A DNA stretch of 64,000 nt. Source: Oscillospiraceae bacterium (lineage in GTDB: Bacteria; Bacillota; Clostridia; UBA1212). The stretch covers positions 1-64,000 of the forward strand of contig SVJA01000010.1 of the NCBI GenBank assembly GCA_015069195.1, written 5' to 3'. Numbering within the stretch: position 1 is the stretch's first letter; every line of letters begins with the position of its first letter. The position numbers and the translations under genes were made by a program. Below are positions 2,699 through 44,495 of this stretch, one piece after another. The notes below the pieces were generated by a model, which saw only the letters and a program-made list of their open reading frames with translations, had not been told where the DNA came from and ran no database searches.

Positions 2699-3919
2699 AT
2701 GGAATTTAATAATATTGATTTTGATACGTACTTTAAAAACTACCCTGACGAGAACGGATTTTTCGGAAAATACGGCGGCGTGTACATTTCGCCGGAGTTA
2801 AAAAAAGCAATGGAAGAAATCACATAATCCTATCAGACCATATGTAAGTCAAGCAAATTTATAAGCGAGTTGCGAAGAATACGAAAAGAGTTTCAGGGAC
2901 GCCCTACACCTATTTCGCATCTTGAGAGGCTTTCCGATAAAATCGGTACCGGTGTACAAATTTATGTTAAACGAGAAGATTTAAATCACACCGGAGCACA
3001 CAAACTCAATCACTGTATGGGAGAAGCGCTTCTGGCAAAATACATGGGAAAGAAAAAAGTCATTGCTGAGACAGGAGCAGGTCAGCACGGTGTTGCACTT
3101 GCTACAGCAGCAGCATATTTCGGACTTGAATGTGATATTTATATGGGAGCGGTTGATATAAAGAAGCAAGCGCCGAACGTTGCAAGAATGAAGATTTTGG
3201 GAGCTAATGTAATAGAGGTTACAGACGGTCTGCAAACACTAAAAGAGGCTGTCGATGCCGCATTTAAAGCTTATGCGGCAGAATATAACGATGCAATTTA
3301 CTGTATCGGCTCTGTATTAGGGCCGCACCCGTTCCCTATGATGGTACGTGATTTTCAGAGTGTAGTCGGAATCGAAGCAAGGGAGCAATTCATCGAAATG
3401 ACAGGTGAATTGCCTGATGCCATCGTTGCTTGCGTAGGCGGCGGTTCAAATGCTATAGGACTTTTCTCGGGATTCCTTAATGACCCCGTTGATATATACG
3501 GTGTTGAGCCGTTAGGACGCGGAACGGCGCTCGGCGACCATGCTGCAAGTCTTAAATACGGTACAGAGGGAATTATGCATGGTTTCAACAGCATTATGCT
3601 CAAAGACGAAAACGGCGAACCTGCTCCGGTTTATTCGGTAGCAAGCGGTCTTGATTACCCTTCTTCAGGTCCTGAGCACGCATTTCTGCACGACCTCGGA
3701 AGAGTCAAATATGATGTGGTTGATGACAACGAAACGATTGACGCATTCTTTGAACTTTCACGAATGGAAGGAATAATTCCGGCAATTGAAAGTTCCCACG
3801 CAGTTGCATATGCAATGAAACTAGCCAAGTCAATGAAAAAAGGCTCAATTCTTGTAAACCTCTCCGGCAGGGGCGACAAGGATATGGATTATATCATTGA
3901 AAAATACGGCATCAGATAA
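2699..3919 (+). pseudogene. trpB: Tryptophan synthase beta chain, interrupted by an in-frame TAA
   Basis: TrpB joins indole and serine to make tryptophan with pyridoxal phosphate. The frame opens at ATG 2699 behind a good GGAGG. It runs 42 codons with the family's N-terminal features (GFFGKYGG and the SPEL helix), hits TAA at 2825-2827, then continues in the same frame without a shift to 3919. The rest is intact: GRPTPI, the PLP lysine in HTGAHKLN, the catalytic glutamate in AETGAGQHG, the glycine-rich CVGGGSNA phosphate loop and the C-terminal LSGRGDKD. Total length of about 406 codons matches the family. The homologous position in relatives is often Glu, so GAA to TAA by one substitution is the simplest cause. 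A weak restart at TTG 2870 would omit the N-terminal domain. It could be a true nonsense mutation or a sequencing or assembly error. Confidence 0.85.
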
Positions 3920-11362: not shown

Positions 11363-11560
11363 AACAAAAAAGTACACCATCTTTTAAAATCCTGGTTTGG
11401 CTTACGCCAAAAAGGATTTTAAAAGATGGTGTACTTTTTTGTTGCTTTATTCAGGTTTGGCTTACGCCAAAAAGGATTTTAAAAGATGGCGTACTTTTTG
11501 TTGTTATATTCAGGTTTGACTTATACTATAAATGATTATAAAAGAAGAGCGGTTTCGCGG
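11363..11560. repeat. Long hairpin with conserved core plus tandem partial copies
   Basis: Arms 11363-11392 and 11414-11443 are perfectly complementary over 30 bases. The 21 bases between them (11393-11413) contain a small inner hairpin, TTTGGC-TTAC-GCCAAA. The core plus right arm is then repeated about 60 bases on (11454-11503), almost identical, and again in degraded form (11513-11560). The element lies between the 3' end of the GH2-like gene and spoIID, so it may terminate leftward transcription; T runs flank both arms. The same core with a different stem recurs at 17233-17309. Confidence 0.85.
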
Positions 11561-11593
11561 AAAGGAAATACTTTCTTCTCTCAAGAATTCAAT

Positions 11594-13417
11594 TTATAGC
11601 ATTACAAAAGGAATTATCCTGGCTTCGCGTATTATATCTTCGTTCTCATAGAAAACAGCTTTGATAACAAAAGATGTCGCTATCATTTGGTTTTCATCAG
11701 GACTTATCAAAAGTGTAATCCCCGGCGAAATATTTTTTGTTTTTGTCGCTCCGCTCATCATCACATCAATTTTCGGCATCCCCTTAATAAACAGTCCGGG
11801 AACACGCTCACCGTACGAATATACCCAACGATTTTTTTTAAATTCTTCTCCTGAATAAGAAGCACTGTCATAGACACCGGCTCGGCTAACTCCTGAAACA
11901 GAAGCCTCGCCGTATACTTTGGTCTGTAAAAGAGTATCCGAAACAGGCAAAGAAAACATAATCGGATTTCCCTCAAAAATTGTCGCATCCTCGGTTATTC
12001 CGCTTACGGAAATACTTATCTCGCCGTCAGAGTACAAAATCGACAAAACGGACAAAGAAACCTCTCCTGCATCATTTTTTAGCGAATACAACGAAGACAC
12101 TCCTATGTGGTGTAAATCGCGGCTCATAACCATGCTGCGAATATGCTCTGCAGGAACTCCGCCGAATGTTATCACACTGTCTCCGTACAAAACATCGCAA
12201 TCTTCTTTCGTGATCTTCTCAAAGCAACCTTTTTCAAGATTGAAAACATTTTCAAAATTCACGCCTGACACACAAACCGTTCCGTTTGATACATCACACT
12301 TAAAAAATGCAGGCATATCAGCAGAAAGAGTTCTCTCGCAAGCAGTCTGTCTTACCGGTAATTTAAACTGACCGATAAACTCACCGTTTACTTTAAAATC
12401 AATAAAATATTCATAGAAAGAAAGTGACGGCGCATTGTGATTAATCATCACCCGGCAGACGTTTCCGCTTGCAAAACTAAGCGGACTTTCACCGTTTTGT
12501 AAGCTTCCGTTCTCTGCAAAAATATCGTATGACAAAGTTGCATTTTTACACTCGCTCAAAGTCATAACATCGAATATGCCCTGTTCAATATCCACCGCAT
12601 CTATCGTAAACTCTCTCGCACTGCCTGTATCATAGTCAGATATGTTTTCACCAATCGGCAAATCTGGTCTTACATGTAAATCCGTAGCTATCGGAATAAC
12701 TTCCTCTCCGCACACCAAAAGTATTAGTCTTACTTTGGTGGGAACGTCACATTTTATTTTACCCTCCCCTGCAATTTCCTTTTCGCAGGTTGCGACAAGA
12801 TTCAGTTCTTCGTCATATACTTCTGCCATAACCTTTGCAGGAATTCTTCTGCTCATATAAATATCCAAATTAACAGAATTATCATTAATTTGGCAAGAAT
12901 AATCCCGTATATGAACAAACTTCCTGGCTATTATGCTTGCCTTACACATAATGGGAAGCTCGTCCGGATTTATTTCCTCGGAAATAATTACTATCTCATT
13001 ATCAATCTCAAAATTCACGTGTGCCGTAATTTCAGTTTCGATATAGTCAATATCACCGTCAAAGCAGAAACTTACAAGCGAACCATTTATATATACCGTC
13101 GTTTTAGGTGAAATATTGTCGATAACAAGATAAAGGCGAAGACCTTTCATATTTTGCGCCAACTTGAATTTTCTTCTGACTGCACACGAATTCTCTTTAA
13201 TGATTTTTTCCCACGCACCGTCAAGTCCTCTGTATAGAAGACCCTTGTCACAACCGCCGCCGATAGCTTCGCAACGACAACTGTAGGGAATGTACTTTGT
13301 ACGACGATTTTCGACATTAAAAGTTTTGCCCTCGAACAAAACGTCCGAAGGCATACCTTTCTCTAATAATGAACTTATTCCATGATATCTTTCAAAAAAC
13401 TTTATTTTGGCTTCCAT
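11594..13417 (-). CDS. GH2 beta-galactosidase-like protein lacking the catalytic barrel
   Basis: A 607-residue protein with no signal peptide. ATG 13417 is chosen because the in-frame GTG three codons earlier lies inside the GGAGG site. Residues ~35-165 resemble the GH2 N-terminal jelly roll (CAVRRKFKL, VYINGSLVSFCFDGD, EIDNEIVII), and ~170-260 an Ig-like domain. From ~270 the sequence looks like the post-barrel domains: an Ig-like sheet (FYEYFIDFKVNG) then a beta-galactosidase small-chain-like sandwich (VSGVNFENVFNLEKGCFEKI, GDSVITFGGVPAEH). The TIM barrel with both catalytic glutamates, normally between them, is absent with no frameshift. The similarity is by eye. It could be a binding or scaffold protein, or an unrelated beta-sandwich protein. 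Confidence 0.5.
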   Translation of the reverse strand: MEAKIKFFERYHGISSLLEKGMPSDVLFEGKTFNVENRRTKYIPYSCRCEAIGGGCDKGLLYRGLDGAWEKIIKENSCAVRRKFKLAQNMKGLRLYLVIDNISPKTTVYINGSLVSFCFDGDIDYIETEITAHVNFEIDNEIVIISEEINPDELPIMCKASIIARKFVHIRDYSCQINDNSVNLDIYMSRRIPAKVMAEVYDEELNLVATCEKEIAGEGKIKCDVPTKVRLILLVCGEEVIPIATDLHVRPDLPIGENISDYDTGSAREFTIDAVDIEQGIFDVMTLSECKNATLSYDIFAENGSLQNGESPLSFASGNVCRVMINHNAPSLSFYEYFIDFKVNGEFIGQFKLPVRQTACERTLSADMPAFFKCDVSNGTVCVSGVNFENVFNLEKGCFEKITKEDCDVLYGDSVITFGGVPAEHIRSMVMSRDLHHIGVSSLYSLKNDAGEVSLSVLSILYSDGEISISVSGITEDATIFEGNPIMFSLPVSDTLLQTKVYGEASVSGVSRAGVYDSASYSGEEFKKNRWVYSYGERVPGLFIKGMPKIDVMMSGATKTKNISPGITLLISPDENQMIATSFVIKAVFYENEDIIREARIIPFVML

Positions 13418-13469
13418 AAAAGCCACCTCCGAAATTTTTCAGATAACAATTTAATTCATCAAATGCTCA

Positions 13470-15530
13470 TCAGTTTCCGTTATACATAACATGTGATGAA
13501 GACATCGCTCCCGTAGTTCCGCTCACGGTTATCAATCTTCCGCCAAGTGAATCGGAACGGCTTTCATCGTATGTGCCGGTCTTTACACCGTATGCACAGT
13601 ATATACTTGTACCGGAATAAGTGTAGCTGTAATTTCTAGTGTGTGTATGTCCGAAAAATACACCTTTAAGATTTCTGCTGTTAGCCTTTGACATAAATGT
13701 AGCATCTATATTTGAGTTAGAAGAGTCAGTCTGTATATGAACAAACATCAATGACGGAACATAAGCACCGCCATTCTTAGTAGCCAAAGCGTCCATATTG
13801 TTTATAATAAGATTCTTTGCATCAGCCTGTATACCGTAACCGATATATACATGTTCAAAGTCAGGATTGGATGTACGGATACCGTCTCCTATATCTTCAC
13901 GAATAACTCTTGTGCCGTTTGTGTCACCCATATAAAGCATATACTTTATTTTGCCGTTTTGTCTGAGTGCAATATTGTAGTTACTGTTACCGGTAACCAT
14001 GCCGGGACGGAATATACAGTATTTTGAATTTATAAGCATCTTATTCTGAGCCAGAACACCTACTGCCGATTCGTTATCATGGTTTCCGTAAGTAGCAGCC
14101 CACGGAATTTCGAAAGAGTCTATATAGTCGATCAGGTCCTGAAAAGCAAGTCCTGTATCGTCTGTTTCACCGTAAATGTTGTCACCTGTAAGAACTATGA
14201 AATCAGGGTTTGTCTGTTCTATAGAATTCTTTATATATTTGTAGCACTGTTCGTATGCAGAATATTCAGGTGCATCAAAATGAGCATTTCTCATTTCAAG
14301 ATAACGCTGATTTGTTCTTATATAGTTCATAGCTTCGATCTGTGTATCGGTAAGCTGAAGAATTTTAATATCATTGGAGTGTGCAAAATCTATCGCAAAA
14401 TCAACACCGTTTTCTCCTAAGTATTTCACATTCGGCATATAATCTTTACCGAGTGTGTATCTTGAACCATCGACAACGACATTAAGAGTCGCCATAACAT
14501 CAAGAACAGTCACATTTTTCTTTGTAGCAGTAAGCAATGCTGCATCACAATTCACACCGGAAAGATCATCGTTGAGAAGTCCTGAATAAACAGCTGCAGC
14601 ATCTGATACATCTACACTGCCGTCAGCATTTACATCACCGCCGATTATGACATTGTATGTAAATCTGTCTGCAATAATTTTCATACCGGTTTTGAGAACT
14701 GTATTTGAAGCAACATTCGCACCTTCCGAATCAGTTACGGTAATGCTGCTCATACAAAGTGCCTCACATATATCCGCAGTAGCATTAGCAACAGTACTTC
14801 CGGGAACAAGCATAATAGCATCAGTATTTGTCTTATATCCGGAACCGATACTTATAACTTTTCCGCTTGCAAAATTTATATTTCCGTATTCACGAACGCC
14901 TGTAAACTTGAAGTCTACAATAACATTTATTGTGTTACCTACCGTATTTGAATTCGGAGCAACCTTAAATGAAATAGTCTGCGCAGCACCACCGTTTGTA
15001 ACTTCTTTTCTGATACCGTCAAGAGATATAGCATCAATCGCATAATAATTTCCGGGTGTGATATTTACCGTAACGGTAGAGTTTGTAGGGAATACTCCTG
15101 ATTTTCTGCCGTCTGAAAGCAAAACAGTACCACTGCCAAGCTCTGTATGACATATAACCGTCATCTCTGCAGCAGGAGGATTAACCGATACAAACGTAAC
15201 CTGTATAGCAGTATTTCCTGTAACCGTAAACTTAAATACCTGAACAGTAGCATTTTCATTTACTGCCTGTGATGCACCACCGATATTTACAGTCTGAATA
15301 TAATAACCCGCACTCGCCTCTACCTGAAAGTTCGCAATAGCACCAACCGGATATTGTATGGTAGCAACATCAGTGCCGGCAGTCTCTCCTCCGAAGTGAA
15401 TGATACCACCCTCATTGTGAGTAAGCGTAAGTGTAGCAACTTCCGCCGCCATAGCAGATATAGCAGATCCGCTAAAGAAAGTAAAAAGCGTCACAAGTGC
15501 AACAACGAGACAAATAATTCTTCTTCGCAT
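13470..15530 (-). CDS. Secreted metallophosphoesterase with internal dockerin-like module
   Basis: A 686-residue secreted protein. ATG 15530 is used; the upstream TTG lies within the GGAG region. A signal peptide covers residues 1 to ~28 (ending SAMAAEV). Beta-rich repeats with Thr/Val fill ~30-290. A dockerin-like stretch at ~297-352 has one good calcium loop (DVNADGSVDVSD) and a second half without the calcium ligands. A calcineurin-type phosphoesterase occupies ~385-680 with LQLTDTQ, VLTGDNIYG, YGNHDNE and FFGHTHTRNY as metal motifs; Gln replaces the usual His in the first. Purple-acid-phosphatase-like relatives share this TDTQ form. It probably acts on an external phosphoester. It is convergent in order with the GH2-like gene, 52 bases apart on the same strand. 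Confidence 0.85.
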   Translation of the reverse strand: MRRRIICLVVALVTLFTFFSGSAISAMAAEVATLTLTHNEGGIIHFGGETAGTDVATIQYPVGAIANFQVEASAGYYIQTVNIGGASQAVNENATVQVFKFTVTGNTAIQVTFVSVNPPAAEMTVICHTELGSGTVLLSDGRKSGVFPTNSTVTVNITPGNYYAIDAISLDGIRKEVTNGGAAQTISFKVAPNSNTVGNTINVIVDFKFTGVREYGNINFASGKVISIGSGYKTNTDAIMLVPGSTVANATADICEALCMSSITVTDSEGANVASNTVLKTGMKIIADRFTYNVIIGGDVNADGSVDVSDAAAVYSGLLNDDLSGVNCDAALLTATKKNVTVLDVMATLNVVVDGSRYTLGKDYMPNVKYLGENGVDFAIDFAHSNDIKILQLTDTQIEAMNYIRTNQRYLEMRNAHFDAPEYSAYEQCYKYIKNSIEQTNPDFIVLTGDNIYGETDDTGLAFQDLIDYIDSFEIPWAATYGNHDNESAVGVLAQNKMLINSKYCIFRPGMVTGNSNYNIALRQNGKIKYMLYMGDTNGTRVIREDIGDGIRTSNPDFEHVYIGYGIQADAKNLIINNMDALATKNGGAYVPSLMFVHIQTDSSNSNIDATFMSKANSRNLKGVFFGHTHTRNYSYTYSGTSIYCAYGVKTGTYDESRSDSLGGRLITVSGTTGAMSSSHVMYNGN

Positions 15531-15572
15531 AAATATAAAATCTCCAATCAATACAAAACTGCAACCAGGATA

Positions 15573-16652
15573 TCATATTTTGTGTTCACTTTCAACTGTT
15601 GAACCGGACAAAGAAGCAATTTTAACAAAAAAGCAACATATGATTGCGTATGCAGGAACAGCAAGCAACATTCCTTTCAATCCAAAAAATTCGCCGCCGA
15701 CGAATACGGCAAGAATAGTTGCAACCGGATGAACGCCCAACTTACCTTCAATAATCTTAGGTGATATGAAATTGTTATCGATTTGCTGAACAGCCGTAAA
15801 CAAAAGTGCCGTAAGAAATGCCTTGAACGGGGATACGATAAATGCCGCTATAACAGCCGGTACCGCCCCGATAAAAGGTCCGAAGTACGGAATAAGATTT
15901 GATATTCCACCGATAATTCCGAAAAGTAAAGGATACGGCACTCCGATTGCCCATAATCCCAAACCTTCAAGAATTCCTATCACGAGTGCAATCAAAAGCT
16001 GTCCGCTTACAAACGATCTGAATATTTTCTCTATATCAAGGTATATTTCAATCAAAAATCCGCGCCACTTATAGGGAAAAAGAGCAAGCACCGTATTTCC
16101 CGCCTTTTCTTTGTCGCGCAATAGATAAAAGGTTATCACTGACGCAGTTACAGCATCGATAAACCCCACTGCAATACTTAATATATTTTTAGGTTTTGCT
16201 GCATCCGCGACATATGCACCAAGATTCTTTTCTATCGAAGAAACTATACCTGTGCCGTTTGCAAAATTCAGCGAAGAATAAATTTTATTTTTTATTAAAA
16301 CAAAATTTTCTTTAATCAAAGGAAGCTGCCTGAGAGCATCCGCCAAGTTCGCCTTTAACGACGGAATTATAAACATCACAATGCCGATGATTATCACTAT
16401 GGTTATCAAAAAGACAACCGCTATCGCTGCCGTCCTTTTTACGCGGCACTTTTTTTCCAATATATCAACGGCCGGTTCAAGTACAAAAAACATAATCACT
16501 CCGATAAAAAGCGGATTTATTACTCGAGCCAATCGATTGCGATAAATCAAAATAGTTGCTGCAATTATTATCACCGGCAATAAGTATAAAAAATTAAGCC
16601 ATGTCGCTTTTATTTTCGAACTTATCGAATTGTTTCTGTCCGAAATGTTCAT
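15573..16652 (-). CDS. AI-2E family permease
   Basis: A 359-residue integral membrane protein with about eight spans. The hydrophobic N-terminal pair (LNFLYLLPVIIIAATILI and VINPLFIGVIMFFVLEP), a soluble middle region and a C-terminal cluster with the family's PYPLLFGIIGGISNLIPYFG and QQIDNNFISPKI match the AI-2E transporter family (COG0628). Members include YtvI, linked to sporulation, and various exporters. The substrate cannot be assigned from sequence. The start follows a GGCGGTGG stretch, and it lies 26 bases downstream of the PRC-barrel gene, probably in one transcript. Confidence 0.9.
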   Translation of the reverse strand: MNISDRNNSISSKIKATWLNFLYLLPVIIIAATILIYRNRLARVINPLFIGVIMFFVLEPAVDILEKKCRVKRTAAIAVVFLITIVIIIGIVMFIIPSLKANLADALRQLPLIKENFVLIKNKIYSSLNFANGTGIVSSIEKNLGAYVADAAKPKNILSIAVGFIDAVTASVITFYLLRDKEKAGNTVLALFPYKWRGFLIEIYLDIEKIFRSFVSGQLLIALVIGILEGLGLWAIGVPYPLLFGIIGGISNLIPYFGPFIGAVPAVIAAFIVSPFKAFLTALLFTAVQQIDNNFISPKIIEGKLGVHPVATILAVFVGGEFFGLKGMLLAVPAYAIICCFFVKIASLSGSTVESEHKI

Positions 16653-16678
16653 ATATCCACCGCCCTGTCAGCAACCAT

Positions 16679-17173
16679 TCACTCTTTCCCTGCAATTATC
16701 CTTTCACGAAAAATTTCAAGGCCGTCACTGAAATAAATAACATTTCTTCCCTTAACTGCATCCTCTACAATACCCCGATAAAGTTCAAAGCCCTCGATAG
16801 TTCCTGTCTCCACATCAAACAACATATCACGGATCACTCCCAGACCTTTTCCGTCTCTTGACTCAACATTTTTTCCGATAAAAGTCGAATACCTGCAATT
16901 TTTCTTTATCCCGTCGTTTTTATCAAACTTCAATATGCTTTTATCACTGTAAATCACACAATTCTTACCGTTAATCTGCAATATTTCATCAAGAAGTATA
17001 ATTTTTTTCCTCAGCGAAATCCCGCTCTGTTCAAGTATAAATGCACAAATCTTATTTTCATTGTCATACAATGCATCGCCCACATACCCTACACGACTAT
17101 CATCCTTAAGGCACACCACCGGAACACCCTTTACACTCAATACACCGGTCAAACGACATCTACCCCTTTGCAT
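16679..17173 (-). CDS. PRC-barrel domain protein
   Basis: A protein of about 164 residues. Two PRC-barrel-like repeats are seen: one with SRVGYVGDALYDNENKICAF and one with GKGLGVIRDMLFDVETGTI. PRC barrels are small beta-barrels found in RimM, photosynthetic reaction-centre H subunits and many short bacterial proteins of unknown role, some tied to sporulation. The start is uncertain: ATG 17173 is listed, and an in-frame TTG at 17188 would add five residues. Neither has a strong ribosome site. It precedes the AI-2E permease in the same direction. Confidence 0.75.
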   Translation of the reverse strand: MQRGRCRLTGVLSVKGVPVVCLKDDSRVGYVGDALYDNENKICAFILEQSGISLRKKIILLDEILQINGKNCVIYSDKSILKFDKNDGIKKNCRYSTFIGKNVESRDGKGLGVIRDMLFDVETGTIEGFELYRGIVEDAVKGRNVIYFSDGLEIFRERIIAGKE

Positions 17174-17232
17174 ATTTATAGCAATCAATCTTTTATTGCA
17201 ATTTAGTTTTTGCAGGAAATAAGTTTTTTATG

Positions 17233-17309
17233 CACAGCAAGGCAGGCGGATGAAAAATCCTGGTTTAGCTTACGCTAAAAAGGATTTTTCATCCGTCTGC
17301 CTTGCTGTG
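17233..17309. repeat. Long hairpin, second copy of the conserved-core family
   Basis: Arms 17233-17260 and 17282-17309 are complementary over 28 bases with one mismatch. The central 21 bases (17261-17281) match the core at 11393-11413 except for two changes, which preserve pairing: TTTGGC/GCCAAA there is TTTAGC/GCTAAA here. Outside the core and the adjoining AAAATCC/GGATTTT the stem is unrelated to the first element. It lies downstream of the pyr operon terminator in the leftward direction. Confidence 0.85.
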
Positions 17310-17320
17310 TTTGGAATATA

Positions 17321-17352
17321 AAAAGCGGCTCGCTTAAGACGAGCCGCTCTTT
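17321..17352 (-). terminator. Terminator of the pyr operon
   Basis: AGCGGCTCG (17324-17332) pairs with CGAGCCGCT (17340-17348), with T-rich sequence on the leftward side, 18 bases after the pyrI stop. Confidence 0.85.
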
Positions 17353-18756: not shown

Positions 18757-19401
18757 TTACGCTGTTATCCAACTCTCGTCAGAGGGATTGTTCCTGAATG
18801 CAATCAATCTCTTTATGTCTTCGTTCTTTATATAGCCGATCTCTGCTGCAACTTCTGCGATTACGTCAAAGTTTGTAAGGCTGATATTTTTTACGTCAGC
18901 AGCTGCAAGTCTGTCAAGACCTTTCTGCATTCCGTATGTGAAGATACTTACGATACCCAAAACTTCTGCACCTGCTTCACGAAGTACGTTTACAACTTCG
19001 ATAACGCTTCCGCCTGTTGAAATAAGATCCTCTACAACTACAACTTTCTGTCCTTTCTCAAGGCGTCCTTCTATCTGGTTTCCTCTGCCGTGATCCTTAG
19101 CCCCTGAACGTACATAACCCATAGGAAGTCCGAGAATATGTCCTGTAATAGCTGCGTGTGCGATACCTGCTGTGCTTGTTCCCATAAGAACTTCTACGTC
19201 AGGATAGTTTGCTTTGATTGTCTCTGCAAGTGCATTCTCAACATCGTTTCTTACTGCCGGAGCTGTAAGTGTAAGTCTGTTGTCGCAGTATACAGGGCTC
19301 TTTATACCGCTTGCCCATGTGAAAGGCTCGTCCGGTCTGAAGAATACCGCCTTTATTTCAAGTAAATCTTTAGCTATAAGCTTCTGAAAATCTGTTGCCA
19401 T
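18757..19401 (-). CDS. pyrE: Orotate phosphoribosyltransferase
   Basis: A 214-residue enzyme that converts orotate and PRPP to OMP. The PRPP-binding loop [13 protein letters not shown] and the mobile loop [13 protein letters not shown] are clear. ATG 19401 follows AAAGGAG. It lies between pyrF and pyrB. Confidence 0.96.
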
Positions 19402-43319: not shown

Positions 43320-44336
43320 ATGGCAGACATTTTAACTCTCGGAATCGAAAGCAGTTGTGATGAAACATCTGCATCTGTAATAAAAAACGGAAGGATTATA
43401 CTATCAAATGTAATATCCACCCAAATAGACCTTCACAAAGTATACGGAGGCGTTGTGCCGGAGCTTGCGTCAAGAAAACACGTTGAATTCATAATTCAGG
43501 TGATAGACGAAGCACTCGCCAAAGCCGGTGTAAAAAAAGAAGAAATTGATCAGATCGGTGTCACCTTCGGTCCCGGTCTTGTCGGAGCACTTCTTGTAGG
43601 ACTTTCGGCAGCCAAAGCGATGGCATTTGCACTTAACAAACCGCTTATAGGCGTTCACCACATCGAAGGTCACATTTCCGCAAACTTTCTCGAAAACCCC
43701 GAACTCGAACCGCCGTTTGTATGCCTTGTTGCATCCGGCGGGCACAGCCATATAGTAGACTGTTACGACTACGGCAAATTCAGAATTTTAGGAAGAACCC
43801 GTGACGATGCCGCAGGCGAAGCATTCGATAAAATTTCCCGGGAAATAGGTCTCGGCTACCCCGGCGGTCCTGCAATCGACCGAGAAGCAAAAAAAGGCAA
43901 CCCCGAAGCCATCAAATTCCCCCGTGTCCACATGGGCGATTCGCTTGACTTCAGTTTCAGCGGTGTGAAAACTGCTGTTCTCAATTATCTGAATAAAGAG
44001 CGTATGCAAGGACACGAAATACCCGTAGCAGATGTCTGCGCATCTTTCCAGAAAGCGGTTACAGACATTCTTACCGAAAACACATTCAAGGCAGCAGAAA
44101 TGTGTGGTTACCGTAAAGTAGCTCTCGCAGGAGGCGTCGCTTCAAACTCAGCACTCCGCAATGCTTTTGAAACAACTGCAGCAAAAAAAGGATTTGAATT
44201 TTATCGACCTTCGCCTATTCTTTGTACTGACAACGCGGCAATGATCGGTTGTGCTGCACACTATGCATCACTTAAAGGACGTTTCTCACAACTTAGCTTA
44301 AACGCCCAACCGAATATATCATTAGAAGAAATCTAA
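43320..44336 (+). CDS. tsaD: tRNA threonylcarbamoyladenosine transferase TsaD
   Basis: A 338-residue enzyme that forms t6A37 in tRNA with TsaB, TsaC and TsaE. It has the metal site [27 protein letters not shown] and the C-terminal CTDNAAMIG. It is 30 bases after the flavodiiron gene on the same strand and ends at a strong terminator; partners are not in view. Confidence 0.96.
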
Positions 44337-44371
44337 AAGAGTAGGTGAAAATTATTTTCACCTACTCTTTT
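44335..44371 (+). terminator. Terminator after tsaD
   Basis: A 17-base perfect stem with a 3-base loop overlaps the tsaD stop codon and ends in TTTT. Confidence 0.9.
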
Positions 44372-44495
44372 AGATTTCCCGGATTATCCGTTGTACGACC
44401 CTTGGTTGTAAGAATACTCTGTTTTATCGGCAACTCTATAAAACATTTATGCTAAAATATTTAAACGATTCAAAAATTTTCGAGGTAGATTTCAT

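What the first reader, a model, noticed from the sequence alone, without database searches (positions are those of the whole stretch)
11363..17309. Hairpin family: covarying apical core, unrelated long stems
Two elements (11363-11443 and 17233-17309) share a 21-base centre in which TTTGGC/GCCAAA becomes TTTAGC/GCTAAA, a compensatory change. Their outer stems of 28-30 base pairs are nearly perfect yet unrelated in sequence beyond the adjoining AAAATCC. Normal repeats spread with their stems; here only the tip is shared. This suggests a process that copies the flank into an inverted repeat around a fixed core, for example template-switch or snap-back synthesis, or selection on a folded terminator with a bound tip.
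Basis: seen in the sequence. Interest (0 to 1): 0.7.

Follow-up and report, generated by a model that had tools for sequence, protein, structure and literature searches.

The report
Mirror hairpins at gene ends
Just after the ends of many genes, this uncultured gut Clostridia bacterium carries very uniform 29-base-pair DNA hairpins that share only their tips; their two arms change together over evolution, which suggests that a DNA-copying process keeps one arm the mirror image of the other.

Summary
The two hairpins belong to a class seen in this genome (G000) and in its genus mate (G002). In about 2.0 Mb I examined 40 elements. Their arms are near-perfect, mostly 26-31 bp (mode 29). A GG...AA junction carries one of at least four tip families. 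The left arm usually starts at the stop codon of the gene in front (28/40 within -6..+7 nt; control hairpins 11/60). In 22/35, copies of [tip + right arm] follow downstream in tandem; none lie upstream. The copies lack a left arm.

Stem sequences occur only at their own locus. The arms of one hairpin agree at 97-99%, while right arms of tandem units agree at 81% and orthologous arms at 54-80%, with mirrored indels. Wobble pairs are rare (1.2-1.6% against 7-13% in other 3' hairpins), so complementarity looks held at DNA level. At other orthologous sites G002 has plain terminators.

Best reading: terminator-like 3' hairpins whose arms are re-copied by tip-primed (snap-back) template switching. 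Arm-copying is inferred; termination and the tip's role are untested. I found no description of this class.

The parts
11363..11393 (+). element 1, left arm (31 nt)
   Evidence: 100% complementary to 11413-11443; fold
11394..11412 (+). element 1, tip GGTTTGGCTTACGCCAAAA (family A)
   Evidence: genome-wide tip family
11413..11443 (+). element 1, right arm (31 nt)
11454..11472 (+). unit 2 tip, period 60 nt after unit 1
11473..11503 (+). unit 2 right-arm copy (R1-R2 29/31), no left arm
   Evidence: (I3)
11513..11549 (+). decayed third unit (degenerate tip and right arm)
   Evidence: read directly from the sequence
17233..17261 (+). element 2, left arm (29 nt)
   Evidence: 97% complementary to 17281-17309
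17262..17280 (+). element 2, tip GGTTTAGCTTACGCTAAAA (family A)
17281..17309 (+). element 2, right arm (29 nt)
17324..17348 (.). ordinary terminator-like hairpin next to element 2; G002 has a plain terminator here but not the element

Best explanation
These are terminator-like 3' hairpins, usually beginning at the stop codon of the gene they follow, with a fixed build: about 29 bp of stem, a GG...AA junction and mostly a small self-complementary tip. SHOWN: the build, the placement, the one-sided arrays, the concerted change of the arms and the lack of wobble pairs. INFERRED: the arms are kept complementary by copying at DNA level. During replication the nascent strand folds back at the tip and re-copies one arm from the other (quasi-palindrome or snap-back template switching), so a mutation or indel in one arm soon appears in both; stem sequence drifts fast while pairing and length persist. 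INFERRED: tandem [tip + right arm] units arise by slippage or break repair starting at the tip, and then decay because nothing mirrors them. INFERRED: tips stay similar because the tip is what folds and primes, or because tips are exchanged between hairpins (one case, element 1 against its G002 ortholog). A role as intrinsic terminators is inferred from position, from a GC-rich block followed by a T-rich stretch in the right arm, and from plain terminators at the orthologous sites.
For: 27 tips in G000 with locus-specific stems. Arm length 26-31 in 37 of 40. Stop codon within -6..+7 of the left-arm start in 28/40, controls 11/60. Downstream-only tandem units in 22/35. Arms of unit 1 99.1% alike against 81.3% for right arms of neighbouring units. 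Four orthologous hairpins: 54-80% between species, 90-100% complementary within, with mirrored indels. Wobble G-T 4 and A-C 7 of 1153 columns; main-helix G-U 1.6% for tip-found elements against 7.5-13.4% in other 3' hairpins. Plain terminators at several orthologous sites. Right-arm composition: G+C-rich at 13-16, T-rich at 17-28. Published precedent for template switching creating and maintaining hairpins (PMC8794818).
Against: No copying event was caught in the act and the source arm is unknown. Template switching alone does not explain a 29-bp ruler, the stop-codon placement or tips shared between loci. Family D tips (GGGAAA) are not self-complementary, so they could prime fold-back only through the stem itself. 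35 of the 40 elements were found by a scan that favours perfect pairing (the tip-only set is the unbiased one). Elements 1 and 2 themselves are not at a same-strand stop codon.
Confidence: 0.5

Rival explanations
1. Selection alone: long terminators or RNA 3'-end shields in which only pairing matters. Point mutations are compensated one by one over a long divergence, and the tip is constrained because something binds it.
For: Plain terminators of the same genus also show compensated or wholly changed stems. Placement at gene ends fits an RNA function. G000 and G002 are diverged enough (about 74-89% nucleotide identity in matched flanks) for neutral sites to be near saturation.
Against: G-U pairs are almost absent, and no commoner than A-C mismatches, although G-U is tolerated in other 3' hairpins. 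Mirrored indels. No single protein is expected to bind four unlike tip families.
Confidence: 0.25
2. A mobile tip module: a unit of about 30 nt moves into, or is exchanged between, the tips of existing terminator hairpins, which supply the unrelated stems.
For: Identical tips on unrelated stems. Element 1 and its G002 ortholog share an A-rich outer stem and position but carry tips A and B. G002 has plain terminators at several element sites.
Against: Native terminators of these genomes have short helices, mostly 9-17 bp, so inserting a tip would not give a uniform 29 bp. No transposase is linked to the tips. Three orthologous pairs are old and vertical.
Confidence: 0.12
3. Multi-chance terminator: a ribosome finishing at the stop codon covers the left arm while right arm 1 is made, and the downstream right arms give the same left arm later chances to form the terminator. 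The arrays are then functional.
For: One left arm at the stop codon and several downstream right arms. L1:R2 duplexes are often far stronger than shuffled ones. Pair-keeping transitions 23 per 236 sites against pair-breaking ones 19 per 431.
Against: Several second units barely pair with L1 (L237:11811, L232:5216, L127). Elements with no gene ending in front of them also have arrays. Similarity of R2 to R1 by descent explains most of the pairing.
Confidence: 0.1

Closest known systems
Intrinsic (Rho-independent) transcription terminators
   Same: Hairpin just after a gene, G+C-rich block followed by a T-rich stretch; plain terminators stand at several orthologous sites.
   Different: Fixed 26-31 bp arms, shared tip families on locus-specific stems, almost no G-U pairs, tandem right arms downstream; the T-rich stretch lies inside the stem. 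Termination not tested.
Quasi-palindrome / template-switch mutation (PMC8794818; PMC7202029)
   Same: Perfect hairpins whose two arms change together; fold-back at an existing hairpin as primer.
   Different: Known as scattered mutation events or short corrections in RNA genes; here dozens of loci of one geometry, tied to stop codons and with polar arrays. Individual events not observed.
REP elements (GTAG and CGTC families, PMC3733652)
   Same: Dispersed extragenic palindromes near genes, sometimes supplying stop codons, with modular tips.
   Different: REPs have 6-13 bp stems described family by family and a terminal GTAG or CGTC tag; here the stems are locus-specific and about 29 bp, and only the tip is shared.

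Membership tests
Intrinsic transcription terminator | Stable hairpin located just downstream of a gene | tested here: met
   Fold z about -13; stop codon within -6..+7 in 28/40; not met for elements 1 and 2 themselves
Intrinsic transcription terminator | G+C-rich stem followed by a T tract | tested here: inconclusive
   Class average: G+C-rich 13-16, T-rich 17-28 of the right arm, but the T tract is paired; a simple terminator scan did not list elements 1 and 2 (its loop limit of 3-8 excludes them)
Intrinsic transcription terminator | RNA 3' ends at the T tract | not testable with these tools
   No RNA data
Template-switch (quasi-palindrome) hairpins | Both arms change together, including multi-base and indel changes | tested here: met
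   Four orthologous pairs; L1-R1 99.1% against R1-R2 81.3%
Template-switch (quasi-palindrome) hairpins | A single switch event recovered with an unmirrored ancestor | tested here: inconclusive
   Element 2's empty site in G002 is too diverged to identify a source arm
REP (GTAG/CGTC) elements | Terminal GTAG or CGTC tag and short conserved stem | tested here: not met
   No such tag in the listed elements and no shared stem; definition from PMC3733652
REP elements mobilised by a RAYT (Y1 transposase) | Y1 transposase with the repeats beside it | tested here: not met
   Two Y1_Tnp matches in G000, one with a stop inside, none found in G002 (69% complete); the locus examined has no family A tip
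Retroelement or diversity-generating element | A reverse transcriptase in the genome | tested here: not met
   PF00078: no match in G000 or G002, controls ring
Curated RNA family (Rfam 15) | Match above the gathering score | tested here: not met
   Only sub-threshold hits to unrelated microRNA-type hairpins

The most novel reading that the evidence does not exclude
A dedicated process maintains and renews gene-end hairpins: a tip used as a unit drives copying of about 29 nt of gene-end sequence into its mirror image, so that each gene carries its own unique mirror stem, and the polar arrays are the record of past rounds.
Probability: 0.15. Interest if true: 0.9.

Novelty: new variant of a known kind. 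Interest (0 to 1): 0.62.

Why it matters
How long RNA stems stay perfect while their sequence changes is an open question; template switching has been proposed, and for maintenance the published evidence is called circumstantial by its own authors (PMC8794818). Here are dozens of loci of one geometry in two species, and each array holds an internal control: right arms with and without a mirror. They make arm-copying directly testable and could show how gene ends in gut Clostridia are renewed.

Tried and rejected
Stems captured from elsewhere in the genome: no second source. Viral spread: exact tip patterns absent from the viral contigs. Wider spread of family A: none in the 29 other genomes of the order. 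Reverse transcription: no RT. Rfam: nothing above threshold. A shared spacer motif TAGCGG in the arrays: not enriched. A homologous stem with the tip inserted at the C2 paralogs (AAAGCCC-AT): too short and common to count, and the matching plain terminator has a plain G000 counterpart. Element 2's empty site in G002 is too diverged to say which arm is original. Assembly artefact: unlikely, because two separate genomes show the class at shared positions. Literature searches found no description of such a class, within an open-access library only.

Full report
WHAT WAS CLAIMED AND WHETHER IT IS THERE. The tip is a genome-wide family: 27 exact matches to GGTTTRGCN{2,6}GCYAAAAAG in 2.0 Mb, none for the reversed pattern. 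Among the genomes of the order that are held, only the genus mate G002 has it. G002's contig C12 has the length of JAFTXP010000019.1, a contig of a roe-deer colon MAG that also turned up by name.

STEMS. Aligning the arms outward from the tip shows either about 29 bp of near-perfect pairing that ends sharply, or almost none. A query of the stems finds each only at its own locus. So "only the tip is shared" is correct within G000.

A CLASS, NOT ONE FAMILY. A tip-independent palindrome scan of 0.86 Mb of G000 and 1.14 Mb of G002 found further tips on the same kind of stem: A (GGTTTAGC..GCTAAAA), B (GGCAAAATTC..GAATTTTCAA), C (GGTTTAC..GTAAAA) and D (GGGAAA or GGAGAAA). I selected class members by a GG...AA-like tip pattern, so that feature is partly by definition; arm length, placement and arrays were not used in the selection beyond a minimum score of 18. 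Five further elements were added from the tip search. Hairpins with score >=18 run at about 50 per Mb in G000 and 46 in G002, against about 7 per Mb in 1.26 Mb of other Clostridia contigs.

RULER AND PLACEMENT. 37 of 40 elements have 26-31 bp arms, mode 29; other hairpins fall off steadily from the threshold of 18. In 28 of 40 the stop codon of a long same-strand reading frame lies -6..+7 nt from the start of the left arm; for 60 other hairpins, even choosing the nearer side, it is 11. Elements 1 and 2 are exceptions to this placement.

POLAR ARRAYS. In 22 of 35 elements, copies of tip plus right arm follow downstream on the same strand; none lie upstream. The copies lack a left arm. One G002 array is a 70-bp unit in ten copies. 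Upstream sequence is often coding, which could by itself forbid copies there, but element 1, its G002 ortholog and three elements on G002 contig C9 have no long same-strand reading frame ending at them and still show downstream copies only.

CONCERTED ARMS. In 21 arrays the first unit's arms agree at 99.1%, while right arm 1 and the best-matching later right arm agree at 81.3%, and the tips at 88.1%. In four orthologous hairpins the arms are 54-80% identical between species yet 90-100% complementary within each, with mirrored indels. Differences between units are concentrated mid-stem. In one pair the arm begins in the last codon and stop of the gene, and the right arm mirrors TGA in one species and TAA in the other. 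Wobble pairs are as rare as A-C mismatches (4 and 7 of 1153 columns). For elements found by tip alone, main-helix G-U is 1.6%, against 13.4% in other 3' hairpins of at least 9 bp and 7.5% in those of at least 18 bp. Selection at RNA level working through G-U intermediates would not be expected to give this; copying between arms at DNA level would.

WHAT STANDS AT THE ORTHOLOGOUS SITES. Three hairpins have the same tip family in G002 (L025/L200 and L026/L127 family A; L219/L173 family D). Element 1's site holds a hairpin with a similar outer stem, a family B tip and its own array; the shared outer stem is A-rich, so convergence is possible. Several sites hold only an ordinary terminator. Element 2's site holds only the neighbouring terminator position that both species have. 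As a control, an ordinary terminator pair also has unrelated stems (L219:4743 vs L207:5368), and another shows compensated substitutions (L237:8422 vs L171:3320). Fast stem turnover is therefore general in this genus; fixed length, shared tips, arrays and lack of wobble set the class apart.

MECHANISM. The best account combines two known things: terminator-like 3' hairpins, and snap-back template switching, which is published as a way to create and maintain perfect hairpins (PMC8794818). The tip would be the fold-back point. Not shown: any single copying event, which arm is the source, termination itself, why 29 bp, and how tips come to be shared. No reverse transcriptase was found. Y1 transposase remains are few, and the one examined is not linked to the hairpins.

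BREADTH. One hairpin in another Clostridia genome (L090:1443, 31-bp arms, stop codon at -5, right-arm copies downstream at about 33-nt period) has the same build. That genome also carries a different dispersed repeat sharing part of the right arm, so I count it only as a possible member.

VERDICT. Its terminator nature is ordinary; the uniform mirror arms with shared tips and one-sided arrays are not. I rate it a new variant of known kinds (terminator hairpins maintained by template switching), with a smaller chance of something dedicated.

Noticed in passing
L279, L280, L284, L285, L288 (genome G031), centre of each locus: Dispersed repeat CAATCCCTCCG-[variable small hairpin]-CACCTCCCTTTRCACAAGGGAGGCTTTTTGTTT; the inner hairpin differs from copy to copy while the flanks are shared.
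   Followed up: partly
window 44328-44378: Perfect 25-bp palindrome with a 1-nt loop at the end of a 344-codon same-strand frame (stop codon at +6): same placement as the class but no tip.
   Followed up: no
L200:17310-17369 and 18856-18899 (G002 contig C10): Two hairpins with the same stem (ACTTTCGCAAATTTTGCGTA) 1.5 kb apart, a case where a stem did spread locally.
   Followed up: no
L248:2326-2407 and 2961-3045 (G000 contig C22): Two 27-28 bp hairpins with a related 28-29 nt tip (CCGAAAACTTACAGTTTTCTAATGA type) and unrelated stems: possibly a fifth tip family outside the GG...AA pattern.
   Followed up: no
G000:C18:79255-79557 (L289): Remnant of an IS200-like Y1 transposase (115 aa frame), apparently decayed and not beside the hairpins.
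   Followed up: partly
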